Source: a virus
Virus record (IMG/VR): IMGVR_UViG_3300046028_000856
Coordinates: 1-24,082 of that record
DNA: 24,082 nt
Direction: 5' to 3' (one strand)
Positions 4,463-19,644 of this stretch are shown in pieces. The notes below the pieces were generated by a model. It made no database searches. It was given only the letters and a program-made list of their open reading frames with translations, and was not told where the DNA came from. Position numbers and translations under genes: made by a program. Within the stretch, counting starts at the first letter, position 1; each line of letters opens with the position of its first letter.

Positions 4463-6940
4463 TTATCTCCTGCCGTCCGGGCGAATATCAATGCGAGGAG
4501 CGCCCAGTTGCCACTGCACCCCCAACCCATCTATTGCGTCACCAGTGGTTCCAGAACTAACTTTGAACGCCATCTGCCGCCCACGAATCCGCACATAGAC
4601 CTGTTGGGTGAACTGCTGTATGTTGTACGTGATCTGGTTCTGGTAGTTCTGGGTGCTGGCCACAGCGGGGTTGTTTGAGTTTCCGTATGCCGCGCCGGGA
4701 AAGGTTCGGGGTATGGCTGTGAAATACGCGGTTGGCTGGTTCACATTAGAGCCGTCAAACGTCAGGTCAGGAATCAAGCGCCACACAAACCCAAAGTTGT
4801 TGCCGTCCCCAATGTCAAAGTCGGAAGACTGCACATTGGCCACAATTGGGACAGGCGGATTAACCGTGCCGTCATCTACACCATCTTCGTGATAAACCAA
4901 CAAACCATTGTCACTTCCGCCAGCAGACCCATAGGTAACTGCCATTGGAGACGACCGTAATGGGCTGTCAAGCCACGCTGTACGCCCTTGGTTGCTTCCG
5001 TTGTAGTTTGCCCAATCCCCGTAATACCATACGTTGTCTCTGTAGTTGTAGATCACATACCGATCAATTACGGTGGAGTTGGTTGAGCAGTACTGCCACC
5101 AGACCTCGTTGTAACCTTCATTGGTTCCAGACACAAACTGAAAAGACTGTGTTCTGTTGATGTCGGTAAATACATATTCACGCAGCGTAGACGGCAGAAC
5201 ATCCACCCGGCCAGAGTACATATAGAACTGATCTAAGCCCATCCAGTACGTGATGTTAGCGGCAGTGGAAACACAATTGGGGCCAGCAATGGAGATGTTG
5301 TCACCCAGAATCTGGAAGCTCCACACGTAGGGTGGGCCAATATATTGCATGGAGTAAATTGCTGCATCAGTAAACACCAAAATCTCTTGCCGAGTCTGCT
5401 GGGCCATAATAATTGCAGACCCACGGCTAAGCCTGTAATCCCCAGCTTGGTTGGTAATAGATGGCGTCCAGGTTTTATAATCTTCTTGATTTGACCAACG
5501 AATTTGCATGGGGTCAAGCGCAGTGGTAGCGTATACCCCGGTTGGATCATTTGTGCCAAAAGCAATAACAAACCTAGATGCGTCAGATACCAGTACGTAG
5601 TTAACAAAAGATGGGCACGTAGCATCCACCCCTCCCGTGCCCGCAAGAACTATCACACCCCGATTAAAGATGGTTGGGCTTGCGTTAACTTCCCAGTAGT
5701 ACAGGGGGCCACCACGCGCATTAAATATAAGGTCTTCACCAAAGTTTGACTGGCTCCATGTTCGTAGCTGAATTCCAATCCCTGTTGCAGCAGCAACCCC
5801 CCACCCGGTGGCAGAAGCTGCATACTGACGAACAACATCCGCAATTGCGTGCGTTGTTACAAACCCTGCGTACCCGCGCACGCACCCGGTAAATGTTGTA
5901 GCGGTTACCCCTGTGTAAGAAATAACTTCTCCAGTAACACTAAAAGTACCAGAAGCAGAGAAGCCTGTTGTGGACGTGACGTTAATTGTTACTGTGGAGT
6001 ACTGGATAACGCCCGTGGCCGAAGGATGCGAAGCAGCAACAGTGGCGCTTGCTCCCCGTGTACAACCCGTCAAAGTTGTAGCGGTTACCCCTGTGTAAGA
6101 AATGATTTCGCTGTCTATTAACACACTACCAGAAGCGGCAAGAGTTGCCGTACTGGCAACGCCAATCGTAGTAACAGAACTGCTTATTGATGCAGAAAGT
6201 ATGCTGTTGCCAACAGTAGCCAAGGCGCTTGTTGTGAGTGTTGTTGTAACTGACGGCCCAGTAGAGCCACCCCACCCACCAGCGCCCCACCCTACACCAA
6301 ACGTATAGATAGAGCCCCCGGTTGTGGCTTGATACGTGGCTAAAACCGAGCCGCCGCCATTCCCTGCATCTCCTGCTGTAGCTACAACAGATACCGTAAT
6401 GCTGTATGTGCTTGAGGATATGTATGTGATTTGAAACTCAGCATTGAGAATAATTGCAGTTACATTGCCACCAAGACTCACTGCCCCACTAAAAGTTACA
6501 AAGTCCCCGGTCTGAGTGCCGTGCCCCGCATCAGTCACTATGATGGTCGAAGACCCTGTTGTTGCTGCAAAGACTGCCCCACCCACCCCCGAAGTAGCCC
6601 GTATAGGTGTTACATCAAAGAAGTCGCCGCCGGGGCCACTCTGTATATAGTATTTAAGACTGGAGCCAAGAGCCAGTAAGTTAAAGCTGGACAACGTTAT
6701 CCAGTTCCACATAGAACGCACAATGCCCCACAACACACCTGTGGTGGGGTAAACAATTGCCGTGCTTACTCCCGCAATATCTGTAGAAAGCGCTCCAGCG
6801 TCTTTTGCCCAGCCGCCAATTTTTTCTGGCAGACCAGAACGAAAGCGCACCTTATTGGTTTGATACCAACCGCCTTCATTGCCGTAGTTGGTGCTTTCTC
6901 GGTTTGTCCCCGGTCTAAACTGAAGCTTCTGTAAGGGCAT
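4463..6940 (-). CDS. Large virion structural protein, probable tail hub/tube component (825 aa)
   Basis: Start ATG at 6940 with AGGAA upstream. The N-terminus (FRPGTNRESTNYGNEGGW, then TNKVRFRSGLPEKIGGW, residues 7-45) is a strong family signature of large tail proteins in short-tailed phages. Next comes a Gly/Ser/Thr-rich region with inserted modules at about residues 257-370, in which an approximately 60-residue unit containing SEIISYTGV and TGC-x-RG occurs twice. The C-terminal half is rich in Trp and Tyr (VWSFQILGDNISIAGPNC, WWQYCS, DNVWYYGDW), consistent with beta-propeller or beta-sandwich folds. The C-terminus ends in GAPRIDIRPDGRR. A P22 gp10-like tail accessory role is conceivable, but I cannot establish that homology by eye. 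It is followed after 1 nt by the small gene at 4461. Confidence 0.8.
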   Translation of the reverse strand: MPLQKLQFRPGTNRESTNYGNEGGWYQTNKVRFRSGLPEKIGGWAKDAGALSTDIAGVSTAIVYPTTGVLWGIVRSMWNWITLSSFNLLALGSSLKYYIQSGPGGDFFDVTPIRATSGVGGAVFAATTGSSTIIVTDAGHGTQTGDFVTFSGAVSLGGNVTAIILNAEFQITYISSSTYSITVSVVATAGDAGNGGGSVLATYQATTGGSIYTFGVGWGAGGWGGSTGPSVTTTLTTSALATVGNSILSASISSSVTTIGVASTATLAASGSVLIDSEIISYTGVTATTLTGCTRGASATVAASHPSATGVIQYSTVTINVTSTTGFSASGTFSVTGEVISYTGVTATTFTGCVRGYAGFVTTHAIADVVRQYAASATGWGVAAATGIGIQLRTWSQSNFGEDLIFNARGGPLYYWEVNASPTIFNRGVIVLAGTGGVDATCPSFVNYVLVSDASRFVIAFGTNDPTGVYATTALDPMQIRWSNQEDYKTWTPSITNQAGDYRLSRGSAIIMAQQTRQEILVFTDAAIYSMQYIGPPYVWSFQILGDNISIAGPNCVSTAANITYWMGLDQFYMYSGRVDVLPSTLREYVFTDINRTQSFQFVSGTNEGYNEVWWQYCSTNSTVIDRYVIYNYRDNVWYYGDWANYNGSNQGRTAWLDSPLRSSPMAVTYGSAGGSDNGLLVYHEDGVDDGTVNPPVPIVANVQSSDFDIGDGNNFGFVWRLIPDLTFDGSNVNQPTAYFTAIPRTFPGAAYGNSNNPAVASTQNYQNQITYNIQQFTQQVYVRIRGRQMAFKVSSGTTGDAIDGLGVQWQLGAPRIDIRPDGRR
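5895..6103 (-). repeat. 29-bp direct repeat inside the tail gene, 180 bp apart
   Basis: Positions 5895-5923 and 6075-6103 are identical over 29 nt, exactly 180 bp (60 codons) apart and in frame. They encode the same part of two tandem protein modules (SYTGVTATT). This indicates an internal duplication of a domain of about 60 residues within the tail protein. Confidence 0.9.
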
Positions 6941-9110: not shown

Positions 9111-10223
9111 TTACGCCTTCATGATGTATGCCAACGCATAGTACGGCGGCAAGTTTGCGCCTGTTCCCGACACCCCTTCGGTTGAGTTAGTGACGGTGGT
9201 GTCAACAGTGCCTGCTGGAGTGCCAGCGGATATGCCGACAATTGATATTCCAGTAAATGCGGGAGGAATTGCCGCAGGGCTTTGAACAGAGCCGCCATTA
9301 CTTGAGCCAGCGTTAATGTTGTTATCGGAAACGCTACCTGGGGTGTGCGTGTGGCCTGGGTCCGTTATGGTGTGCGTGTGCGTGCCCAACGCCGTACCTG
9401 TGAACGTGGAGCTCGAAGTCGTCGTGTGGGTGTGAGAAACTAAAATAGCGTTTGCACTGCCGCCTGTTGCATCCACTGCATAAGTGGTGCCCGCCCCCAC
9501 AATGAACCTGTCGCGCAAATCAGGCGTGCTGTTTGTGCCATCGCACAAATTCCAACCACTTGGGATGGAGGCAATGCTGCCGTACCACATGGTAATCACG
9601 CCAGTAGGGATGATATCTCGCACAAACGCAGTCGTAGCAATTTGCGTGGTGTCAGTTCCAAACGCCGCAGTCGGCGCAAGGGGGGTGCCTGTAAAAGTAG
9701 GGGACGCGGACAACACCGTCGAACCTGTACCCGTAGAAGTAGTTACACCTGTGCCACCGTTGAGAACAGGCACGACCCCTGTGACGTTTCCTGACTTTAT
9801 TTCGTAGAAGTTTGTGGCGTCCGACCAGACAAACACTTTATCGCCGTTGGCAACCGTAATCCCTGTACCTGCTGCCGTGGTGTTGCCAATCACAGACGAG
9901 TTGTAGATGGTCATTGACTGGCCGCTGTTGTTCCAAACGATGTACGCTTTAGAAGCGGGGGGCGCATAGACAGCAAAAGTTGCCCCAGTCGTGGTGGTGA
10001 ACCGCAACATGGCATACACGGCTTGGTTGCTTGCTGCCGTAGACGTTGGGCCGTTGGTAAATGTCAGGGCTTGGCTGGCAGCAACAACGCTGACCGTCTG
10101 ATACCCGGCAACGGACGTATCTAGGATGTATGCCAGATTACTGTTGGTCGTGTCCCCCCAAGTACCCGCCTGGGTACCATCACCGGGAAGTTCAATCCGA
10201 AGACTTGATGAATACGTGCTCAT
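9111..10223 (-). CDS. Tail fibre with phage tail collar domain (370 aa)
   Basis: Probable receptor-binding fibre. The N-terminus (MSTYSSSLRIELPGDGTQAG, then WGDTTN) is the conserved virion-attachment motif of many podovirus fibres. Residues 152-180 carry LNGGTGVTTSTGTGSTVL, a common trimeric-fibre linker. Residues 206-243 (PTGVITMWYGSI, IPSGWNLCDGT, TPDLRDRFIVGAG) are the collar domain (PF07484 type). HTHT/HTHTIT/GHTHT clusters at 264-294 resemble the His-x-His metal sites that knit trimeric fibre tips, and LPPYYALAYIMKA at the end is diagnostic. AAGGA precedes the ATG at 10223. It is the last gene of the fibre cluster. Confidence 0.88.
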   Translation of the reverse strand: MSTYSSSLRIELPGDGTQAGTWGDTTNSNLAYILDTSVAGYQTVSVVAASQALTFTNGPTSTAASNQAVYAMLRFTTTTGATFAVYAPPASKAYIVWNNSGQSMTIYNSSVIGNTTAAGTGITVANGDKVFVWSDATNFYEIKSGNVTGVVPVLNGGTGVTTSTGTGSTVLSASPTFTGTPLAPTAAFGTDTTQIATTAFVRDIIPTGVITMWYGSIASIPSGWNLCDGTNSTPDLRDRFIVGAGTTYAVDATGGSANAILVSHTHTTTSSSTFTGTALGTHTHTITDPGHTHTPGSVSDNNINAGSSNGGSVQSPAAIPPAFTGISIVGISAGTPAGTVDTTVTNSTEGVSGTGANLPPYYALAYIMKA

Positions 10224-10232
10224 TTTGTTTCC

Positions 10233-10631
10233 TTATTGCGGTGCTTGCAAATCCCGGACATCCCAGGATTGCGTTGTTTCATTCCATATGTATGGGCCAC
10301 CTTCAATCGGCATTGATACTGGCGCATTCCACAAACAAGTTTCTAAATCTAAAACCCATGATGGGTAGGGTTGGGGCGGGATAAAAGCATCCAACTCCAC
10401 ATTGTATGTAAACCCAATACCCGCATAGTTTTTCCGTAATGATTTAGATTGATCAAGCGATGGCGTAGCCGGGCTTACATTTGGTTGGTAATGAATACCG
10501 CCATACGTGTTGTATGAAGTTTTTACCCATGATGAAGGATTGCCAAATGTGCCGGAAGCAATTACATCTTGCGTTGCCGTAATAACTTGATCAACAATTC
10601 CTTGTGCAGTTACATAAGCATAATGTCCCAT
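10233..10631 (-). CDS. Small conserved fibre-associated phage protein (132 aa)
   Basis: Start ATG at 10631 with AAAGGA upstream. The sequence shows a pattern familiar from cyanophage and other phage virion genes: MGHYAYV start, WVKTSYNTYGG, RKNYAGIGFTYN, DAFIPPQPYPSWVLD and a W-rich tail (CLWNAPV, YIWNETTQSWDV). These proteins usually lie beside tail fibre genes, and many are annotated only as structural or hypothetical. It sits between the glycine-rich adhesin and the collar fibre with gaps of about 10 nt, so it is probably a fibre-attached or fibre-assembly component. No catalytic motif or membrane segment is seen. Confidence 0.8.
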   Translation of the reverse strand: MGHYAYVTAQGIVDQVITATQDVIASGTFGNPSSWVKTSYNTYGGIHYQPNVSPATPSLDQSKSLRKNYAGIGFTYNVELDAFIPPQPYPSWVLDLETCLWNAPVSMPIEGGPYIWNETTQSWDVRDLQAPQ

Positions 10632-10642
10632 AATTTTTTCCT

Positions 10643-11755
10643 TTACGCGGTGTAAGTGCCGGAAGAATTGTAAACAAGAATGGTATTTGCACCAACGGTC
10701 GAAACAGTCGGAGACCCAGTTGTTGTGCCGGTATAGTCTGCTGTGGCTATTTTAAGAATAACAACACCGGAACCGCCCGCCTTACCTGCTTGTGTACCCA
10801 CACTTCCACCTTGAGTTCCGCCGCCGCCGCCGCCGGTATTTGTTCCACCTGCGGTTGCACTGTTGTAAACCGCGCCTGTACCGCCACCACCTGTACCCCC
10901 GGTTATTGTTGATCCTTGGCCGCCCGAACCGCCGCCCGCACGAGTTACAGATGATCCTGTTACGGATGAAGCAACACCATTACCGCCTTGTGCGCCGGAA
11001 CCTGCCACACTTGCGCCGCCGCCACCACCTGCCGTACCTTGACCGCCGGGGTTAGTGCCGCCGCCAAAACCTTGTCCGGTTGTTCCTGTTCCGGCGCCTT
11101 GTCCACCTGTACCAACCGGATCGCCACCACCGCCACCTGAACCGCCGTTTCTAGTTTGCCCCGAAGCAGCAGGACTTCCCGAACCACCACCAGTAGAAGT
11201 AATGGTTGAAAAAACAGAATTTGTACCATTAGATGCAACTGCACCGCCGCCGCCAACGGTAATTGTGTATGTTGTGCCTTCCAACAAGGTAAGCGCAGAT
11301 TCTGCCGTTGCGCCACCACCGGAAGATTCTCCCGAAATACTGCTTCGGTAACCACCCGCGCCGCCACCTGCCGAAGCGTAAGTGTCCGAACCTAAACCAT
11401 TACCACCGCCACCGCCGCCAGCCACAACAACATATGTTGCAGTGTAGTTATACGCGGAAGATGATAGGTATTGCCATTGACCCGCAGTATATATTTCAAC
11501 TACTGATTCTGTAGTGTTATACCGAATCATGCCCGTACCCGGCGAACCGGGGCGTTGGGCAGTTGTACCAACAGGCAAATCAAAATACCCAGTACTTGTG
11601 TTGCTTTGATCGGATACTTGGGCGGGCGTAACCGCAGTTAGCAACGTACCCGTTTCATCAGGCAGCGTTAGCGTCCTGTTTGTGTTTGTGACGGGGGCTA
11701 AGATGGTGACAGTGCCCGTGCCTGTAGCGCCCCCTTGCACGGCTATTAAACTCAT
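10643..11755 (-). CDS. Glycine-rich tail adhesin (370 aa)
   Basis: The ATG at 11755 has AAAGGAG upstream and overlaps the stop of a 32-aa gene (ATGA). Residues 1-40 carry VTILAPVTNTNRTLTLPD, a short N-terminal module also found in the fibre gene at 11863. Residues about 60-95 include TTAQRPGSPGTGMIRYNTTE, another common fibre motif. Residues about 108-335 are glycine-rich (TYVVVAGGGGGG, GGGAGGYRSS, TITVGGGGA, GKAGGSGVVILKI). This matches phage glycine-rich domains thought to fold as polyglycine-II sandwiches, as in the distal adhesin of T4-like phages such as S16, where loops contact the receptor. The receptor role here is inferred from that family. Confidence 0.85.
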   Translation of the reverse strand: MSLIAVQGGATGTGTVTILAPVTNTNRTLTLPDETGTLLTAVTPAQVSDQSNTSTGYFDLPVGTTAQRPGSPGTGMIRYNTTESVVEIYTAGQWQYLSSSAYNYTATYVVVAGGGGGGNGLGSDTYASAGGGAGGYRSSISGESSGGGATAESALTLLEGTTYTITVGGGGAVASNGTNSVFSTITSTGGGSGSPAASGQTRNGGSGGGGGDPVGTGGQGAGTGTTGQGFGGGTNPGGQGTAGGGGGASVAGSGAQGGNGVASSVTGSSVTRAGGGSGGQGSTITGGTGGGGTGAVYNSATAGGTNTGGGGGGTQGGSVGTQAGKAGGSGVVILKIATADYTGTTTGSPTVSTVGANTILVYNSSGTYTA

Positions 11756-11850
11756 GCCGCTGCTCCTTTAAGTGCTGCAACTTCTTGTGCTGTCAGGTCT
11801 ATGGTTGTTTGCAGACCAGTTTGTACATTGACTTCAATTCTTGAGTTCAT
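11752..11850 (-). CDS. Very small conserved-type phage protein (32 aa)
   Basis: ATG at 11850 with AGGGA upstream encodes MNSRIEVNVQTG, then LQTTIDLTAQEVAALKGAAA, and stops as ATGA on the start of the glycine-rich adhesin. The pattern of a short beta strand followed by DLTAQEVAAL is typical of tiny fibre-cluster proteins that I recall from other phages. Its start region shares 22 nt with the start of the 63-aa gene at 12844. A coupling or leader function for the adhesin is possible; the biochemical role is unknown. Confidence 0.6.
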   Translation of the reverse strand: MNSRIEVNVQTGLQTTIDLTAQEVAALKGAAA

Positions 11851-11862
11851 GGTTTTTCCCTG

Positions 11863-12429
11863 TTAACGGAAGACAGAAACATAAATACCACCCGTATCTA
11901 TTAAAGTATTTACATAATTGACAATAACAATTTGACATGCTGTTGTTGTTTGATTAGATGGTGCGCCGTATTGTGTAGCTGATTTAACTGTAATAACTAA
12001 AGATGAATTGTTATTTCCAGCGGATACTGTTAATGCCACGGCATAATTAGCATCTGGCAACGCAGTTGTAAAGTTAACCGTATAGTCACCCGTACTGTTA
12101 TCCGTAATGCTCGAAACATTACCACTTGCATTAATTGCTACAGTACCAGTGCCATTAAATTTTACCCAAGCACGAGCCATATACAACGGGGCAGTGCCTG
12201 ACACGGTGGCAACCTGTGCTGAGTCAATGTTTGGCGTGGTTAATGTTGGGCTGGTTAGTGTTTTATTTGTCAGTGTCTGAGTTGCAGCAATACCCGCTAC
12301 TGTGTCAGTGACATCAGGCAGCGTTAGCGTCCTATTAGTATTGGTGGCAGGGGGTACAACAGTAATTATTCCTGTACCTGATTGCGTCAGTATTTCCAAC
12401 TGACTAACTGCAATTGTTCCGTTTGCCAT
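11863..12429 (-). CDS. Short tail fibre protein (188 aa)
   Basis: Residues 1-45 contain PPATNTNRTLTLPDVTDTV, matching the N-terminus of the glycine-rich adhesin. Residues about 48-70 hold [17 protein letters not shown], a repeat-like fibre shaft motif. The C-terminal half ([45 protein letters not shown] end) is a fibre-tip domain shared with the paralogue at 12860-13411. The ATG at 12429 overlaps the upstream stop by 1 nt (TAATG). Probably a virion fibre or accessory adhesin; the receptor is unknown. Confidence 0.82.
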   Translation of the reverse strand: MANGTIAVSQLEILTQSGTGIITVVPPATNTNRTLTLPDVTDTVAGIAATQTLTNKTLTSPTLTTPNIDSAQVATVSGTAPLYMARAWVKFNGTGTVAINASGNVSSITDNSTGDYTVNFTTALPDANYAVALTVSAGNNNSSLVITVKSATQYGAPSNQTTTACQIVIVNYVNTLIDTGGIYVSVFR

Positions 12430-12656
12430 TACAAACTGTCCATAATAGTTTTAAGTGGAGCCACAGTTGCAGCAGCATCAATGGCTGTTTGCATGGCAGC
12501 ATACTTGTCCCTGATAACCTGTCTTGCCGCTTCAGCAGCCACAGCCTCGTTTGGGATGGTGACCTTGATGTCCAGGGGTGCAAATTCAGCAGACCGCGCC
12601 AATCTGCGTTTGTCGTGAGCAATGACTTTGGCTTTATCTACGTTGATGGTAATCAT
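12429..12656 (-). CDS. Small conserved fibre-cluster protein (75 aa)
   Basis: The open frame reaches 12671, but the ATG at 12656 is preferred because it forms ATGA with the upstream stop and gives MITINVDKAKVIAHDKRR, the start I recall for this family. The rest is helical (AEFAPLDIKVTIP, then AAEAARQVIRDKYAAMQTAI, ending LKTIMDSL). Such proteins are common beside phage fibre genes and resemble the C-terminal part of fibre-assembly proteins, so a chaperone-like role for the adjoining fibre is plausible but unproven. Confidence 0.75.
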   Translation of the reverse strand: MITINVDKAKVIAHDKRRLARSAEFAPLDIKVTIPNEAVAAEAARQVIRDKYAAMQTAIDAAATVAPLKTIMDSL

Positions 12657-12844
12657 GCTGTGTACTCCCATGCGTTTCTAAATGTGCGGTCTGATGGAAT
12701 GTCAGCAACATCCACAATCTTATAAGGCTTGCCAGCAGGAACATCCTTGGCGGCAAGCTCCTCAATAGTTAAGCCGCACTCTTCGGCTGGAATAATGACG
12801 GCCACACCGCCATCGTCTGTTGGGTAAATAATTCTTGAGTTCAT
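12653..12844 (-). CDS. Small conserved fibre-cluster protein (63 aa)
   Basis: Starts at ATG 12844 (MNSRIIYPTDDGGVAVIIPA), with only a weak AAGAA upstream, and stops as ATGA on the next gene. The body includes GLTIEELAAKDVPAGKPYKIV and ends IPSDRTFRNAWEYTA. I recall nearly the same pattern in many phages, immediately before the MITIN-type gene, so the two probably act together. No enzymatic motif is visible. The first codons share 22 nt of DNA with the 32-aa gene at 11850, pointing to cassette duplication. Confidence 0.78.
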   Translation of the reverse strand: MNSRIIYPTDDGGVAVIIPAEECGLTIEELAAKDVPAGKPYKIVDVADIPSDRTFRNAWEYTA

Positions 12845-12859
12845 GGTTTTTTCTTTTGA

Positions 12860-13411
12860 TTAACGAAAAAAAACCGCAGTAAAAGTGTCACGATCTACTG
12901 CGCCAGTTGGTCGAGCGTCAATCATGCGAAAAGACGCAGCTAATATTGTTGCTAATGAATAAGAAGAAGGTATGGAATTTCCATTTACGCCATTAGTACT
13001 ACAGCAAGCAAATCCGTAATTTACATCAGACATAGCAGTCGTAAAGTTTATTGTGTAGTCACCAGTGCCGTTATCCGTAATGCTAGACACATTACCGCTT
13101 CCACGAATCGCACTAGTGCTTGGGTTTGGGGAAAATGCGTTTGCACCATCAAAATTTACCCATGCGCGAGCAGAATAAGATGGCGCAGAACCAGATGCTG
13201 TAGATAATGAGGCAGGTGCAGGTATCCCTGTGCAGTTGGTCAAAATACCGCTTGCCGGAGTTCCTAGAGCCGGAGATGTAAGCGTAGGGCTGGTTAGTGT
13301 CTTATTTGTCAGCGTCTGGGTATCTGTAAGGCCAACAACCGCACTAGCAGGGTTGCCAACGCCACTAGCAGGGAATGTTACTCCAAGAGAGCCATCTAAA
13401 ATTAAACTCAT
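12860..13411 (-). CDS. Short tail fibre protein, paralogue of the 188-aa fibre (183 aa)
   Basis: Start ATG at 13411 with AAGGA. The N-terminus ([17 protein letters not shown]) is a frequent phage fibre opening. Residues about 30-60 carry [20 protein letters not shown]. The C-terminal domain ([48 protein letters not shown] end) is clearly related to the fibre at 11863-12429 but differs in the distal part, as expected if tips diverge under receptor selection. Followed by the 63-aa and 75-aa small partners. Probable virion fibre. Confidence 0.82.
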
Positions 13412-13420
13412 TTTATTTCC

Positions 13421-13879
13421 TTAGACCACAACCCAGCGACTGCCGCTTGGGACTGTGACTGTAATGCCTGAGTTAAGAGTGACCGGCCCTGCGCTCATGG
13501 CGTTGTTTCCTGTTGTAATAGTCGAGCTAACAGCAACAGTCGCTGCATTTTCAACATACCCTTCGCTTCCAATTACAGCACGTTTTGACGGGTATGTAAC
13601 AAACACATCTTTGGTGCCCGCACTGAAATTGACAGCCGAGCCGCCGTTAGACGATGTTAATACTGTTGTTCTGGCAAGGGTTGTGCCTGACAGGGTGTAT
13701 GTGCCAATCCCAACTTCCCATTCTGTTCCAGTCTGGGCTGCAATGGTGTAGTAGGTGGTGTTTCCGTTACCTATGGCCGAAAAAGCCTGAAACCCAGTCG
13801 ATGCCCCAAGCAGAGTCACTGTTCCCGTACCCGTTGTGGTGGTTGTCTCTTTTACTCGGTCTGTAAGTACTAAAGCCAT
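13421..13879 (-). CDS. Conserved tail fibre / base protein (152 aa)
   Basis: Start ATG at 13879 with AAGGA upstream. [19 protein letters not shown] at the N-terminus, then [27 protein letters not shown], and [20 protein letters not shown] are a well-known signature of phage proteins at the base of fibre clusters. The C-terminal [17 protein letters not shown] is a short strand repeat seen at fibre ends. All beta in appearance, with no membrane segment. It probably links or caps fibres on the tail; the precise position in the virion is not known. Confidence 0.8.
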
Positions 13880-13888
13880 ATGTGTCCT

Positions 13889-16510
13889 TTAAGCGACCAG
13901 CGCCCAAGTTGTACCTTGAGAGTCATTTACATTATTCCACGTTGCGGACTGATTGTCATTTACCAACACCCACGTGGAGCTTTGGGCATTGTTAACGATT
14001 TGCCAATCACCCCTAATCGGCGCATACCCAACCAAAGTCAAAACCCCGCATGGCGGCGTGATAATTGTTCTTCTGACCAATCCAGGTATCGACCCAACCA
14101 AAGATAACGCAACCCCGGCAGGTTGTACAAGTATAGTCTGAGTAACAGACGGAGCATAACCTGTTACGCTTACAGCCCCCACTGATGGGGTAATTGATAC
14201 CGCAGTTATTACATCTGGTTGAACGCCAGTAACTAAAGCCGCGCCAGTGCTTGGTGTTACAAAAGAATCTTGTCTAACTACCGGGGCGCTATACGCCAAG
14301 GTTAAATTACCAACGCTCGGCGTAATTAAGCTATCTTGAATCGTTGATGGGGCGTTGCCAACTAAAGTCAATGTTGCCGCAGCAGGGGTCATTACTTTGC
14401 CAGTAACAACGACAACAGGCGCGGAGCCGATTATTTCTGCGCCGCCGCTAGGTGTAAGGACTGTTCCAGTAACAGCCAGTGGGGCCGCCCCAGCAATGGT
14501 TAAATTTTGTACCGCAGGCGTGATAACTTTGGCGCTAACAACAGACGGTGCTACGCCTGTAGCCGTCAGTGAGCCAACGCTTGGCGTGATAAATGTTTCT
14601 CTGAGTAAGGAAGGCGCGATACCCGTAATAGCCGTTGCCCCAACAGTCGGCGTAACGATCGTCTGTCTTATTAACGATGGGGCAGCCCCGGTAACCGTTA
14701 ACGACCCAACAGTCGGTGTAATAACTTTTTCATTAACAACAGAAGGAGCTATACCTACCAGTGTCAGCGAACCAACAGCAGGCGTAATGATTGTCTGTCT
14801 CAGTAACGAAGGAGCAACGCCCGTAATAGTTACTGCTCCAACGGATGGCGTAATGATTGTCTGTCTAAGCAGCGATGGTGCTACGCCTGTAGCCGTCAAT
14901 GCACCTACGCTTGGCGTAATGATAGTCTGTCTTAAGAGAGAAGGTGCTATACCTGTAAGAGTCGCTGAACCAACACTTGGTGTAATTATTGTTTGTCTTA
15001 GTAGCGACGGGGCAGTACCCGTAACAGTCAAAGAACCGACGCTTGGGGTCCTCACGTTGCCCGTAACAACAACGACAGGCACAGAGCCGATTAGTTCTGC
15101 GCCGCCACTAGGCGTAACGACTGTCCCAGTAACATCAGTTGGCGCTATGCCTGTAAGCGCTAAAGAACCAACGCTTGGGGTAATTACTGTCCCTCTAACA
15201 ACCGTAGGGGCAACACCAGCAAGCGTTAGCGAACCAACGCTCGGTGTAATTATTGTTCCTCTAACAACCGTAGGCGCAACACCAGCAACAGTCAGCGAGC
15301 CTACGCTCGGCGTGATGATTGTCTGTCTAAGTAAAGAGGGCGCTACACCCGCAAGCGTTAAAGTACCTACGCTTGGCGTAATGATGGTCTGTCTTAATAG
15401 CGATGGGGTTACACCGGTAAGAGTCAATGCTCCTACAGACGGGGTAATGATGGTCTGCCTTAGTAACGATGGTGCTACGCCAGCAACAGTCAGCGAGCCA
15501 ACGCTTGGCGTGATAAATGTTTGTCTAAATAACGATGGGGCCACGCCTGTAATAGTTAATGAACCTACAAACGGGGCTACGATTGGCCCTGTAACAGTAA
15601 TTGGCGCTACGCCTGCAAGTGTCAGTGCCCCAACGCTAGGGGTAATGATTGTCTGTCTAAAAAGCGATGGTGCTATGCCAGTAGCCGTTACCGACCCAAC
15701 AGCAGGTGTGATGATTGTCTGACGTAATAGCGAAGGCGCAACGCCAGTAATAGTCAACGACCCAACAGCGGGCGTAATAATCGTCTGTCTTAATAGCGAT
15801 GGTGCTACACCAGTAAGAGTCAACGCGCCTACGCTTGGCGTGATTATTGTTTGCCTTAGTAGCGATGGGGCTATACCTGCAAGCGTTAAGGTACCTACGC
15901 TTGGCGTGATAATTGTCTGTCTTAGTAGAGAAGGCGCTATACCAGTAATAGTCAACGCGCCAACGCTTGGCGTAATAATCGTTTGAACTATGTCTGTAGG
16001 TGCTACGCCTGTAAGCGTTAATGCGCCTACGCTTGGCGTGATAATTGTTTGCCTTAGTAGAGAAGGCGCAATCCCTGTAAGCGTTAAAGAGCATACAGCA
16101 GGCGTGATTATTGTTTGAACAATATCGGTTGGAGCGACACCCGTAAGCGTTAACGAACCTACGCTTGGGGTAATGATTGTTTGAACTATGTCTGTAGGCG
16201 CTACACCAGTAAGAGTCAACGCGCCTACGCTTGGCGTGATTATTGTTTGCCTTAGTAGCGATGGGGCAATCCCTGTAAGCGTTAAAGAGCCTACAGCAGG
16301 CGTAATGATTGTCTGTCTAAGCAGCGATGGTGCTATGCCTGTGATAGTTAACGCCCCTACAGCGGGCGTAATGATCGTCTGCCTTAGTAACGATGGGGCA
16401 ACGCCCGTAAGCGTTAATGCGCCTACTAAAGGCGTTATGTTGGTATTTACAAGCGAATCCGCACCCAGCCCCGAAAACGGTGCGCCGGAAAACGGTGCTT
16501 GTGAAAACAT
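13889..16510 (-). CDS. Giant repeat protein, 37 copies of a 22-residue unit, probable fibre (873 aa)
   Basis: ATG at 16510 with GAGG 5 nt upstream. Residues 1-24 are a short non-repeat head (MFSQAPFSGAPFSGLGADSL). Residues 25-838 are 37 consecutive units, each 22 residues without indels, of the pattern ITP-(S/A)-VG-(A/S)-LTLTG-(V/I)-AP-SLLRQTI. Units 21 and 31 are a distinct type (TPSGGAE-IIGS-PVVVVTG) exactly 220 residues apart. Residues about 835-873 switch to an 11-residue repeat with Trp (TWVLVNDNQSA, TWNNVNDSQGT). Alternating beta-strand character and constant length suggest a solenoid or long fibre shaft. Similar LTLTGYAPTV-type repeats occur in other phage proteins, to my memory. Its place in the fibre cluster supports a virion surface role. 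Confidence 0.88.
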   Translation of the reverse strand: MFSQAPFSGAPFSGLGADSLVNTNITPLVGALTLTGVAPSLLRQTIITPAVGALTITGIAPSLLRQTIITPAVGSLTLTGIAPSLLRQTIITPSVGALTLTGVAPTDIVQTIITPSVGSLTLTGVAPTDIVQTIITPAVCSLTLTGIAPSLLRQTIITPSVGALTLTGVAPTDIVQTIITPSVGALTITGIAPSLLRQTIITPSVGTLTLAGIAPSLLRQTIITPSVGALTLTGVAPSLLRQTIITPAVGSLTITGVAPSLLRQTIITPAVGSVTATGIAPSLFRQTIITPSVGALTLAGVAPITVTGPIVAPFVGSLTITGVAPSLFRQTFITPSVGSLTVAGVAPSLLRQTIITPSVGALTLTGVTPSLLRQTIITPSVGTLTLAGVAPSLLRQTIITPSVGSLTVAGVAPTVVRGTIITPSVGSLTLAGVAPTVVRGTVITPSVGSLALTGIAPTDVTGTVVTPSGGAELIGSVPVVVVTGNVRTPSVGSLTVTGTAPSLLRQTIITPSVGSATLTGIAPSLLRQTIITPSVGALTATGVAPSLLRQTIITPSVGAVTITGVAPSLLRQTIITPAVGSLTLVGIAPSVVNEKVITPTVGSLTVTGAAPSLIRQTIVTPTVGATAITGIAPSLLRETFITPSVGSLTATGVAPSVVSAKVITPAVQNLTIAGAAPLAVTGTVLTPSGGAEIIGSAPVVVVTGKVMTPAAATLTLVGNAPSTIQDSLITPSVGNLTLAYSAPVVRQDSFVTPSTGAALVTGVQPDVITAVSITPSVGAVSVTGYAPSVTQTILVQPAGVALSLVGSIPGLVRRTIITPPCGVLTLVGYAPIRGDWQIVNNAQSSTWVLVNDNQSATWNNVNDSQGTTWALVA
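13997..16438 (-). repeat. 66-bp coding tandem repeat array, 37 units
   Basis: The array encodes the 22-residue units of the 873-aa protein. Units keep strict length but differ at many third positions, so the array is old or diversified rather than freshly amplified. A higher-order duplication is visible: 14401-14460 and 15061-15120 are nearly identical and offset by exactly 660 bp (10 units). Confidence 0.92.
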
Positions 16511-16579: not shown

Positions 16580-17038
16580 TTAGGTTAAGGTAAATATGCC
16601 AGTAGCGGCTGGGAGGATAGTTAACGTATTTGGCGAAGTAACTGTGAACTGGGTGGTAGACAGTTGACAAAAACACAATAACTTGCCCGCGCCCGCGCCC
16701 GTGGAATTACGGAGAATAGCATATTTTATATTTGTCAATGAAGCGCCAGATGCTGTAAAGGTCAAGCCAATAGTAGACATCGTGTACTTCATCTGTTTTG
16801 CAGACGCGCCAACGGTCCATTGTGCCGTTGCAGGAACAAGGTTACGCCCACCAACAACATAACCGCCAGTAGCGGAAATCTCGTTTGTTATTTGACTGTA
16901 CGTACTAAGCGTAAATGTAGATGCGTTACTTGCGGAACGGGCCAACACCATTTTAAAAACACCAGCACCGAGCGTGATTGTCCCGTTGCCAATGTATCTT
17001 TTAGCGTAGTTGTAAAGTTGCCATGCACTTGCAGCCAT
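16580..17038 (-). CDS. Conserved small phage structural protein (152 aa)
   Basis: The frame opens at 17104, but ATG 17038 is chosen: it has AAGGAG 7 nt upstream, lies just after the upstream stop, and gives MAASAWQLYNYAKRYIGNG, the start I recall in this phage family. Further motifs are ITLGAGVFKMVLARSASNAS, then YSQITNEISATGGYVVGG, then YAILRNSTGAGAGKLLCF and ITLPAATGIFTLT-like beta strands at the end (LTILPAATGIFTLT). Predicted all beta. These proteins are usually encoded near tail fibres and probably decorate the virion. It is paralogue-like to the gene at 18479-18901 in pattern (GGY, ILRNSTGAGAGK versus ALIYKAGANGA). Confidence 0.78.
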   Translation of the reverse strand: MAASAWQLYNYAKRYIGNGTITLGAGVFKMVLARSASNASTFTLSTYSQITNEISATGGYVVGGRNLVPATAQWTVGASAKQMKYTMSTIGLTFTASGASLTNIKYAILRNSTGAGAGKLLCFCQLSTTQFTVTSPNTLTILPAATGIFTLT

Positions 17039-17039
17039 G

Positions 17040-18464
17040 TTAAATCTCCTTGATTTCGGCGTATGATGCGCCAGTTTCCAAAATATGGTGGAGAAGCCCA
17101 CCATACACTTCTAACTCAATTTCATCGCCCAACATGCGAATCAGGTCGATAAATTCTTGTGCTTGCGAAATCATCCAAGGGTTGCAGTAGAAAATCTTTC
17201 CACCAACATTTACTGGGGCTACTACTTGTCCGTCATTTTCCGTCTGTTCATAAGCATGGTGTTTGCCATCTTCTAAACATGAATCGCATCCAAACAGATG
17301 AAATCGCTTGAACCCTAGCATTCTAAACAAAGGGATTGCTCTAAGCAATACCGTAGAACCGCCGGGGATGGGAAACCATGTTTCGTACTGTTCTGCAAGA
17401 ATATTATTAAGCAGTTCAGTGCTTGTGTGCCAAATGTAAGTACGTTCTTTTGGTAACTTATCAAACACAGATGGGTCACACTGGGATGCCATGAAATATT
17501 TGCAGTCATCTACAACATTCTCAACAAACCGCTTGTTGAATTCCCTGCCGTCCACCATCACAAAAGCAGAAGGTGTAACGCCGTTATCCAAACAATATTG
17601 GTAAGCATTGTTGATTGCGACCAACTTAACGCCGTTTGCACGGAGTTCTTTGATCTTGTCCATGTTCTTAGCAAGAGAAGGCCCACCACCCACAATCATC
17701 AATTCAACATCATTTGTTGGGTATGGCTGTACCTGTTGAAAACCCAGAGAAATGTTGTGCTTGACATTTGCCTTGATTTTTTCTTCATCCAAGTTGATAA
17801 CACCAATCTCCACAACATCTACACCAGAAGACCATGCAGTTACATAAAACAGGCAGTATCCGTCACGCTCTTCGGACCAGTGGATGATGCACTTGCGGTC
17901 ATTAAACTTTTGCAACCACCATGAATAGGGCTGTACAGTTAAGTGTAGTTTGTGGCCTACCAGTTGACCCATTACATCGTCTTCTGTGGCAATTTGAAAA
18001 AACACATGCTGGCAAGCAGCCAAACAGTTATCTAGCACACGGTCTACATGATGTGGGCGAATATGCTCCATAACATCCGTGCAAAAACCATAAGCGGCAG
18101 ATACTGGTAGTGGCTGGCTTAAATCCGCTTCTACAAAGCGCATGGCGTGGCTTTGCGTTTTTAACATTGGAACGATGTCTTCATCTAGGCAGTTGTCAGC
18201 AAAGTCAACCATAGTGACATTCATGCCACCAAAAAATGCTAAATTCAGTGACCCGCGCCCTGTACCGCAACCAAGGTCAATAACTGACGCGCCTTTTGGG
18301 GGCTTGGCTTGCGCTAAGAACTCTTGAGCAATATGCTCTCCAGGGGCTACAACTCTGTATTCTGGACGGCTCCACATCATCTTGTATAAATCTTTTTCTA
18401 ACGGGCGGTTGTTAGTGATTTTTACTTCTGGTGGGTCAGAAAGAACAGAGGAGAAAAAAGTCAT
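17040..18464 (-). CDS. Methyltransferase-DUF115 fusion protein (474 aa)
   Basis: Residues about 40-215 are a class I SAM-dependent methyltransferase: motif I VIDLGCGTGRG (61-71), an acidic residue at 87 (TMVDFAD), VEADLSQPLP (111-120) and CTDVMEHI (128-135). Residues about 253-460 resemble DUF115/MptE-like proteins (PF01973): LMIVGGGPSL (255-264), AINNAYQYCLDNGVTPSAF then VMVDGRE (283-308), and PGGSTVLLRAIPLF with FHLFGCD (367-394). DUF115 proteins include Maf-type factors linked to flagellin glycosylation with nonulosonic acids, and archaeal MptE pyrophosphokinase. The gene sits between two virion genes with 1-nt and 14-nt gaps, so it is co-expressed with structural genes. The substrate is unknown; modification of a virion protein or host glycan is inference. 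Confidence 0.82.
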   Translation of the reverse strand: MTFFSSVLSDPPEVKITNNRPLEKDLYKMMWSRPEYRVVAPGEHIAQEFLAQAKPPKGASVIDLGCGTGRGSLNLAFFGGMNVTMVDFADNCLDEDIVPMLKTQSHAMRFVEADLSQPLPVSAAYGFCTDVMEHIRPHHVDRVLDNCLAACQHVFFQIATEDDVMGQLVGHKLHLTVQPYSWWLQKFNDRKCIIHWSEERDGYCLFYVTAWSSGVDVVEIGVINLDEEKIKANVKHNISLGFQQVQPYPTNDVELMIVGGGPSLAKNMDKIKELRANGVKLVAINNAYQYCLDNGVTPSAFVMVDGREFNKRFVENVVDDCKYFMASQCDPSVFDKLPKERTYIWHTSTELLNNILAEQYETWFPIPGGSTVLLRAIPLFRMLGFKRFHLFGCDSCLEDGKHHAYEQTENDGQVVAPVNVGGKIFYCNPWMISQAQEFIDLIRMLGDEIELEVYGGLLHHILETGASYAEIKEI

Positions 18465-18478
18465 TTGTGTGTTTCCTT

Positions 18479-18901
18479 TTAAGCAAGTCGAATGAGTGCC
18501 GATGTACTGGTGTTAGCAGGCATCGTCACGGTGAAAGTTGCACTAGATGTCTTGTCATTGCCGAAGTCTAGCACGCACACAGCGCCGTTGGCCCCGGCTT
18601 TGTAGATCAACGCCCCCCTAGCGGTGATCGCGCCCGTCCAAGACGGAGAGGAAAAGTTGACGAACACAATGCTTCCAGAAGAAGTGGACTCCGTGCCAAC
18701 CGTAGCTGTTACCACCAGACCTGTAGCAGCATAGTTGCCCCCCGTTGCTTCTCCAGTAGCGGTATATGCTGTGGTGGTCTGGTCAAGCGTGGCAGCGTTG
18801 GTGTACAACGCCAAGTAAAAGACATCGGTTGAGAAATCAAACGACCCGCTTGCCAGCCCTGATCGAAGAGTATTGCAACTAAAGTTGCCTGTGAATGCCA
18901 T
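18479..18901 (-). CDS. Conserved small phage structural protein (140 aa)
   Basis: ATG at 18901 overlaps the preceding stop by 1 nt (TAATG). The pattern MAFTGNFSCNTLRSGL, DVFYLALYTNAATLDQTTTAY, TATGEATGGNYAATG, ITARGALIYKAGANGA and VCVLDFGNDKTS is a familiar phage family found close to head-tail connector genes. All-beta composition, no membrane segment. A decoration or tail-tip role is plausible; I know of no experimental assignment. Confidence 0.8.
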   Translation of the reverse strand: MAFTGNFSCNTLRSGLASGSFDFSTDVFYLALYTNAATLDQTTTAYTATGEATGGNYAATGLVVTATVGTESTSSGSIVFVNFSSPSWTGAITARGALIYKAGANGAVCVLDFGNDKTSSATFTVTMPANTSTSALIRLA

Positions 18902-19644
18902 TACACAACCCCAGTATTCTGTGGTAGCGGCGCTTGCCGATACTGCCCACTGCGATACGCATCGCTCCGCTCCAGACCATCACCTAGACGTTTGGCCAAT
19001 GCAAGTGCTTCCATGTACTTCTGGTTGTACCCGGCAATGATATCCATCTCACCCTTCATAAAGGTGTAGGCTTCCACCAAAGACCCGTACAACAGCACGG
19101 TGTCAAAGTTGTCACCAAGCCATGTCTGGCCAGAAGCCACTGTGGTGATGGATTCAGGGTAATAATAGTAGTGCAACTCAACGTAATACGTCGCGTCTGG
19201 CGTGGGGCCAAGAATAAGAGACAACTCGTTTGTAATCGCTGAACTGACAATTGTGGGGCCAAACAGCGCGTAATATTTTGGCTCGCCCGTAGAATTTGGA
19301 GTTGGGTACGCCTGACGGATGAAGTTCACATCCTTGTTGAGTAAATACTCAAACGTGCCTGTATCTAAATCAGCGCCCGTAACACCTGTCACCAACGCCA
19401 AAGAATACACAGACAAGAAGTCGTTGGGCAAAGACACGTACTTGTTGTTTGCAGTAATTGCGCTGTACTGGTTCTTGCGAATAGATGGGAACTGAACCGA
19501 GTTGTATATACGTTGTTCAGCCTGCGTGATAAAAGTATTGATCTGTGTCGTTGCGGACACAGTACTCCCACTCGCAAGGTACACAGCCGGGAACTGATTC
19601 TCGGTGTAGCTCTGAATTGTGTTGTACAACTCGGTGTAGTTCAT
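18901..19644 (-). CDS. Head-to-tail adaptor-like protein (247 aa)
   Basis: The start overlaps the upstream stop (ATGA at 19644). The N-terminal helical part (MNYTELYNTIQSYTENQFP, then INTFITQAEQRIYNSVQFPSIRKN) followed by ANNKYVSLPNDFLSVYSL is characteristic of the phage SU10-type adaptor family (PF24175 to my memory), functionally comparable to T7 gp11. The middle (NFIRQAYPTPNSTGEPKYYAL, LSLILGPTPDATYYVELHYYYYP) and the C-terminal helices (GSLVEAYTFMKGEMDI, YNQKYMEALALAKRLGDG) complete the pattern. It should bind the portal ring and connect it to the tail. The family call is good by motif; the exact ring position is inferred. Confidence 0.82.
   Translation of the reverse strand: MNYTELYNTIQSYTENQFPAVYLASGSTVSATTQINTFITQAEQRIYNSVQFPSIRKNQYSAITANNKYVSLPNDFLSVYSLALVTGVTGADLDTGTFEYLLNKDVNFIRQAYPTPNSTGEPKYYALFGPTIVSSAITNELSLILGPTPDATYYVELHYYYYPESITTVASGQTWLGDNFDTVLLYGSLVEAYTFMKGEMDIIAGYNQKYMEALALAKRLGDGLERSDAYRSGQYRQAPLPQNTGVV

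What the first reader, a model, noticed from the sequence alone, without database searches (positions are those of the whole stretch)
13889..16510. 37 perfect-length 22-residue repeats in one phage fibre-cluster protein
Reading the protein directly gives 37 consecutive units of exactly 22 residues with no insertion or deletion over 814 residues, a short head and a Trp-rich tail. Strict length with variable composition is what a solenoid or repetitive fibre shaft requires. I know of related LTLTGYAPTV-type repeats in phage proteins, but not of a structure or role for an array this long. It could be a molecular ruler or a long side fibre that sets reach from the virion.
Basis: partly seen in the sequence, partly recalled or inferred. 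Interest (0 to 1): 0.75.

Follow-up and report, generated by a model that had tools for sequence, protein, structure and literature searches.

The report
Long 22-residue-repeat phage fibre-cluster protein
A freshwater phage gene in the tail-fibre region encodes a protein built of 37 nearly identical 22-residue blocks that is probably a rigid rod; relatives carry the same end pieces with 4 to 37 blocks, so the phages appear to change the rod's length by adding or removing whole blocks.

Summary
The 873-residue protein (13889-16510, minus strand) has a 24-residue head, 37 units of 22 residues (25-838) and a tail with Trp every 11 residues. Two corrections: units 21 and 31 contain compensating -1/+1 shifts, and the tail begins inside unit 37. 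The array is under protein-level selection (dN/dS about 0.12 between units). In most of 80 IMG/VR loci that share the conserved upstream gene, the next gene has the same plan with 4-37 units (median 11); the window's array is the longest. Length changes near the head; tail-proximal units stay orthologous. New here: the head is a strict triplet of aromatic pentads (F/W-x4-F/W-x4-F/W, 46 of 48 distinct heads), and the same head and Trp tail can enclose a different, 20-residue repeat. AlphaFold2 gives a beta-helix, one coil per unit, at low confidence (pLDDT 66, pTM 0.61). Gene order (adaptor, fibres, lysis, nozzle-like protein) matches phage SU10, whose long tail fibres lie in this slot. Most likely it is an adjustable-length rod of the tail-fibre apparatus. 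Virion presence, oligomeric state and 'ruler' function are untested.

The parts
13889..16510 (-). 873-residue repeat protein: head, 37 x 22 residues, Trp tail
16439..16510 (-). head, residues 1-24 (MFSQAPFSGAPFSGLG...), aromatics F2, F7, F12 as a pentad triplet
   Evidence: triplet in 46 of 48 distinct heads, shuffled mean 0.5 and largest 4
13997..16438 (-). 37 units of 22 residues (residues 25-838)
15647..16438 (-). units 1-12, head-proximal part: close to each other, not clearly orthologous to units of relatives; where array length changes
13997..14986 (-). units 23-37, tail-proximal part: orthologous by position to units of relatives (mostly 0.85-0.98 DNA identity to L003)
13892..14005 (-). 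C-terminal tail with four Trp at spacing 11 (W836, W847, W858, W869), overlapping unit 37
16580..17035 (-). conserved upstream neighbour (phrog_644-like, 151 aa), the anchor of the slot survey
   Evidence: 205 relatives in IMG/VR, the 80 kept at 84-100% identity; phrog_644
18901..19644 (-). SU10-type adaptor protein
   Evidence: PF24175 E 1.6e-20; phrog_2941; isolate homologues
9111..13879 (-). downstream fibre genes (p152, p183, p188, Gly-rich p370a, p132, p370b)
   Evidence: tail-fibre PHROGs; p370b matches tail-fibre genes of isolates
4463..6940 (-). nozzle-like virion protein, downstream of the endolysin
   Evidence: phrog_3287; PDB chain 9nwi_Y E 9.9e-16; position as SU10 gp17

Best explanation
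The gene encodes a structural protein of the tail-fibre apparatus of a short-tailed phage. It is a rigid beta-solenoid rod in which each 22-residue unit forms one coil. An N-terminal triplet of aromatic pentads caps or docks one end, and 11-residue Trp repeats form the other end. The rod spaces the two ends apart, and its length evolves in whole coils by gain and loss of units near the head. Shown: the anatomy, unit-length constraint, protein-level selection, copy-number variation, the site of length change and gene synteny. Inferred: the solenoid fold (low-confidence model), presence in the virion, which end binds what, and the spacer role.
For: 37 x 22 residues far above chance. Hydrophobic residues at unit positions 8 and 10 in 91-93% of 656 distinct units, alternating with small or polar 7, 9 and 11, with Gly/Pro turns at 3, 6, 12 and 15. 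Unit-to-unit dN/dS 0.12 with saturated synonymous sites, 0.18-0.20 between orthologous units. 52 complete distinct relatives with 4-37 units, 599 spacings of exactly 22. Ortholog identity rises from paralogue level near the head to 0.98 at the tail. AlphaFold2 model with three short strands per unit, which aligns with right-handed beta-helices including phage tailspikes, Z 17-20. Slot follows the SU10-type adaptor and precedes fibres, lysis and nozzle-like genes, as SU10 long tail fibre genes gp12-13 do.
Against: Model confidence is low (mean pLDDT 66, pTM 0.61; other models down to 48), Foldseek finds nothing below E 1e-3 (best 0.061), and AlphaFold2 readily folds repeats as solenoids. No oligomer could be predicted. 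The tail was not modelled (pLDDT under 40). No virion proteomics. HMM libraries give no convincing family (Pfam DUF3572 is a repeat-driven hit with no single passing stretch).
Confidence: 0.5

Rival explanations
1. The repeats form an intertwined homotrimeric beta-fibre, like other phage and viral fibre shafts, with three chains sharing one hydrophobic core; the monomer solenoid model is then an artefact. With a rise of nearly 2 nm per 22 residues the shaft would be tens of nm long, a true long side fibre.
For: Phage tail fibres are usually trimers; in SU10 all fibres are trimers (PMC9509320). The position in the genome is that of SU10 long tail fibres. Few charged residues. Low model confidence.
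Against: The best model closes each unit into a coil of the size typical of right-handed parallel beta-helices.
Confidence: 0.27
2. It is an accessory decoration or adhesive protein on head or tail: the array is a multivalent surface that binds a host polysaccharide or another surface, and length sets avidity, not reach.
For: Many proteins with the predicted fold are polysaccharide-binding enzymes or tailspikes; repeat number varies widely; the fibre cluster already holds several candidate receptor-binding genes.
Against: No catalytic or ligand-site signature; units are small and uniform, without the loops that carry binding sites in tailspikes.
Confidence: 0.13
3. The array is a low-complexity repeat that expands by recombination with little function.
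For: Repeat number varies and head-proximal units are similar to each other.
Against: Synonymous sites between units are saturated while amino acids are kept (dN/dS 0.12), variation sits at third codon positions (112 vs 42 and 13), and spacing never leaves 22 in the close relatives.
Confidence: 0.04

Closest known systems
Slot proteins of uncultured phages found here (IMG/VR, e.g. L003, L004, L016, L030, L018, L050)
   Same: Same slot after the phrog_644-like gene, aromatic-pentad head, 22-residue units, 11-residue Trp tail
   Different: 4-30 units instead of 37; many have a Trp/Gly head (GWGRGTWSSAEWG) in place of MFSQAPFSGAPFS
Pelagibacter phage HTVC027P gp68 (QGZ17849.1, hypothetical protein, cultured phage)
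   Same: Same position after adaptor and phrog_644 homologue; head W6-W11-W16 triplet, further GWGxxxWGxxxWG islands, Trp-containing C-terminus
   Different: No 22-residue periodicity; the two C-terminal Trp are 15, not 11, apart; only the Trp/Gly motif is matched by profile (probability 15%)
L089-L095 proteins with 20-residue ESSTATD-type repeats
   Same: Same aromatic-pentad head, and Trp tail in at least L089 and L090
   Different: Shaft of 20-residue units, not 22; not detectably related in the shaft
Repeat protein of Podoviridae sp. ct9yY11 (UOF78774.1, MW202572.1)
   Same: 22-residue beta-rich repeats, profile probability 91%
   Different: About 8 units, no aromatic-pentad head or Trp-11 tail seen; lies next to the gene annotated as major capsid protein
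SU10 long tail fibre gp12/gp13 and nozzle gp17 fibre-dock loop
   Same: Gene position; three Trp receive a trimeric fibre in gp17 (Trp839, 847, 857; PMC9509320)
   Different: No sequence similarity shown; Trp spacing 8 and 10 in gp17, 5 and 5 in these heads
Right-handed parallel beta-helix proteins (alginate epimerases, phage tailspikes)
   Same: Predicted fold (Z 17-20)
   Different: Those have coils of variable length with loops and active sites; here all coils are equal and loop-free. Fold likeness only, identity 4-10%

Membership tests
Aromatic-pentad head / 22-residue shaft / Trp-11 tail proteins (defined here) | Head with three aromatics at spacing 5 | tested here: met
   F2, F7, F12
Aromatic-pentad head / 22-residue shaft / Trp-11 tail proteins (defined here) | Tandem 22-residue units at exact spacing | tested here: met
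   37 units, 36 spacings of 22
Aromatic-pentad head / 22-residue shaft / Trp-11 tail proteins (defined here) | C-terminal Trp at spacing 11 | tested here: met
   four Trp, spacing 11
Phage tail fibre | Encoded in the tail-fibre gene cluster | tested here: met
Phage tail fibre | Sequence similarity to a characterised tail fibre | tested here: not met
   no fibre PHROG or Pfam family for this protein; no PDB homologue for the profile
Phage tail fibre | Homotrimer, present in virion | not testable with these tools
   monomer prediction only; no proteomics
Right-handed parallel beta-helix | Coils of parallel beta-strands of about 22 residues | tested here: inconclusive
   model m287cca3f29e9, pLDDT 66, pTM 0.61, Z up to 20, but Foldseek E 0.061 at best
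Pfam DUF3572 | Match of one contiguous domain | tested here: not met
   39.6 bits in sum, but no stretch passes on its own; best stretch covers 24 of 84 positions

The most novel reading that the evidence does not exclude
The head is a general phage docking module: exactly three aromatic pentads (F/W-x4-F/W-x4-F/W) that place three aromatic side chains for a trimeric partner, the principle seen in the SU10 nozzle loop. It is joined to interchangeable solenoid shafts (22- or 20-residue coils) whose length phages tune one coil at a time.
Probability: 0.18. Interest if true: 0.75.

Novelty: new variant of a known kind. Interest (0 to 1): 0.5.

Why it matters
Reach of a phage's adhesins is thought to matter for host range, but natural systems in which length varies in clean steps while both ends stay constant are rare. 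This family offers a series from 4 to 37 units, so rod length can be tested against virion structure and adsorption. It also gives searchable motifs (aromatic-pentad head, Trp-11 tail) for a group of proteins that Pfam and PHROGs do not cover and that fill the fibre slot of many uncultured phages.

Tried and rejected
Pfam DUF3572 (sum of weak repeat hits) and PDB 'Rab family protein' matches (repeat-driven phmmer hits at E 0.0003-0.0014) were rejected as artefacts of repetitive sequence. Mycobacteriophage minor tail protein matches (31-38% identity) are at best the same kind of repeat: Bipolar gp20 has a few loose units. The genome-contig scan with the Trp/Gly-head profile found no confirmed relative, so no host or prophage was identified. 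tblastn with two shorter relatives found none beyond near-identical records in the phage collection; compositional filters limit this. Literature searches for the repeat, head and tail motifs found nothing. A pseudo-threefold Trp dock at the C-terminus was considered and disfavoured because the number of tail Trp varies from 2 to 5. The first structure job (11 units plus tail) was too poor to use (pLDDT 55). No RNA family or tRNA in the window.

Full report
What is there. The window is a 24 kb IMG/VR virus fragment. On its minus strand lies an 873-residue ORF, 13889-16510. Residues 1-24 form a head, residues 25-838 are 37 units of 22 residues, and residues 836-873 form a tail with Trp every 11 residues. 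The repeat is far above chance: nucleotide identity at lag 66 is 0.607 against 0.294 (largest 0.325) for codon shuffles; a unit profile scores 37 units against at most 1 in shuffled proteins. Two of the units (21 and 31) have compensating -1/+1 shifts and remain 22 long, and the same variant unit recurs across the family.

Selection. Between units 1-12 synonymous sites are near saturation (dS 1.36) while amino acids are kept (dN 0.16, ratio 0.12); between orthologous units of relatives the ratio is 0.18-0.20. Units 4 and 7 are identical in protein but 88% identical in DNA. So the repeat is old and kept at protein level, not a recent DNA slippage product.

Relatives. A scan with the protein found near-identical, partly truncated copies and relatives at 72-85% identity. 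A scan with the conserved upstream gene (16580-17035) found 205 relatives, of which 80 loci were kept. In most, the next gene has the same plan. In three (L040, L043, L049) a homologue of the window's next downstream gene follows instead, and four loci are cut or show no clear ORF. Among 52 complete distinct proteins the array has 4 to 37 units, median 11; 599 spacings are exactly 22, the other 54 are mostly 24 or skip one poorly scoring unit. In the closest relatives (27, 30, 30, 30 and 37 units) no spacing other than 22 occurs. A strict DNA pattern scan shows that 22-residue units of this type also occur in other phage genes with other ends; the longest there has 28 scored units of mixed spacing.

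Where length changes. Aligned from the C-terminal end, the window's units 8-18 are 0.62-0.89 identical in DNA to L003, most of them at the level of paralogues, whereas units 25-37 are 0.85-0.98 identical; the seven extra units lie in the head-proximal part. The array thus appears to grow and shrink near the head while the tail-proximal coils are conserved by position.

The ends. In 46 of 48 distinct heads there are three aromatics spaced 5 and 5 (shuffled heads: mean 0.5, largest 4); the other two (L076, L088) show the triplet slightly later in the sequence. Whether the head is MFSQAPFSGAPFSG or GWGRGTWSSAEWGQG, the register is the same. Of 39 distinct Trp islands 37 have exactly three Trp in register and none has four; the two with two Trp continue with Phe or Tyr. 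Tails have 2-5 Trp at spacing 11 in 48 of 52 distinct cases. The distinct heads are related by descent, so these counts are not independent events. Proteins L089 and L090 carry the same head and Trp tail around a shaft of 20-residue units, so the shaft is an exchangeable module. The cultured Pelagibacter phage HTVC027P has, in the same slot, a protein (gp68) with the Trp triplet head, two further triplet islands and a Trp-containing end; its middle is not 22-periodic.

Context. Upstream are an SU10-type adaptor (PF24175), two phrog_644 paralogues and a methyltransferase/MptE-like gene; downstream come tail-fibre-like genes, an endolysin and a nozzle-like protein. In SU10 the order is adaptor gp11, long tail fibres gp12-13, holin and endolysin, short fibre gp16, nozzle gp17 (functions from PMC9509320). 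In Roseobacter phage CRP-902 the gene after the phrog_644 homologue is annotated as a tail fibre. The slot is therefore a fibre slot by synteny.

Structure. With 50 rows from this family, AlphaFold2 predicts for the head plus nine units a coil per unit with strands at unit positions 8-12, 16-19 and 22-1 (pLDDT 66, pTM 0.61). Foldseek finds nothing significant (best E 0.061; viral library likewise). The structural aligner places the model on right-handed beta-helices at Z 17-20, rmsd 2.4-3.1. The alternating hydrophobic pattern and Gly/Pro turns seen in 656 distinct units agree with such a coil, but an intertwined trimer cannot be excluded.

Conclusion. Best reading: an adjustable-length rod of the tail-fibre apparatus (confidence 0.5), most likely a beta-solenoid. 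At 0.48 nm per coil (general knowledge of beta-solenoids) the window's rod would be about 18 nm. The aromatic triplet may cap the solenoid or dock a trimeric partner; the second option rests only on analogy with the SU10 nozzle loop and is stated as a hypothesis. Limits: metagenomic assembly can distort repeat counts, but the 37-unit array is found in several contigs from sister samples (L001 and L002 complete, L002 differing from the window by one base in the units; L009 and L011 partial), which may be the same virus population.

Noticed in passing
17040-18464 (-): A 474-residue protein joins a methyltransferase domain to an MptE-like domain (PF01973) and sits between two phrog_644 paralogues inside the structural gene cluster; it may modify a virion protein or glycan.
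   Followed up: no
16580-17035 and 18479-18901 (-): Two divergent phrog_644 paralogues flank that gene; the first is kept at 84-100% identity in the 80 contigs fetched, and the second is the one with clear homologues in pelagiphages and roseophages.
   Followed up: partly
14355-15722 (+): A 455-codon ORF without stops runs antisense to the repeat array; it is periodic because the array is, and is most likely a by-product of its codon usage.
   Followed up: no
71-156: Tandem repeat of a 15-base unit, 5.7 copies, 97% matches.
   Followed up: no
L012 6001-7968 (also L036): In contig 3300042691_001984 the repeat gene is split by one in-frame stop codon; the closely related L010 has no stop there.
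   Followed up: partly
L095 3296-4384: Head-like (FGxSFFGDxPFA) and Trp-pair tail-like motifs alternate several times at the end of one protein, suggesting that both are autonomous modules.
   Followed up: no
L107, L109, L113, L119: 22- to 24-residue LTLTG-type units occur in other phage gene contexts with other ends (for instance an acidic C-terminus), so the shaft module is widespread.
   Followed up: partly
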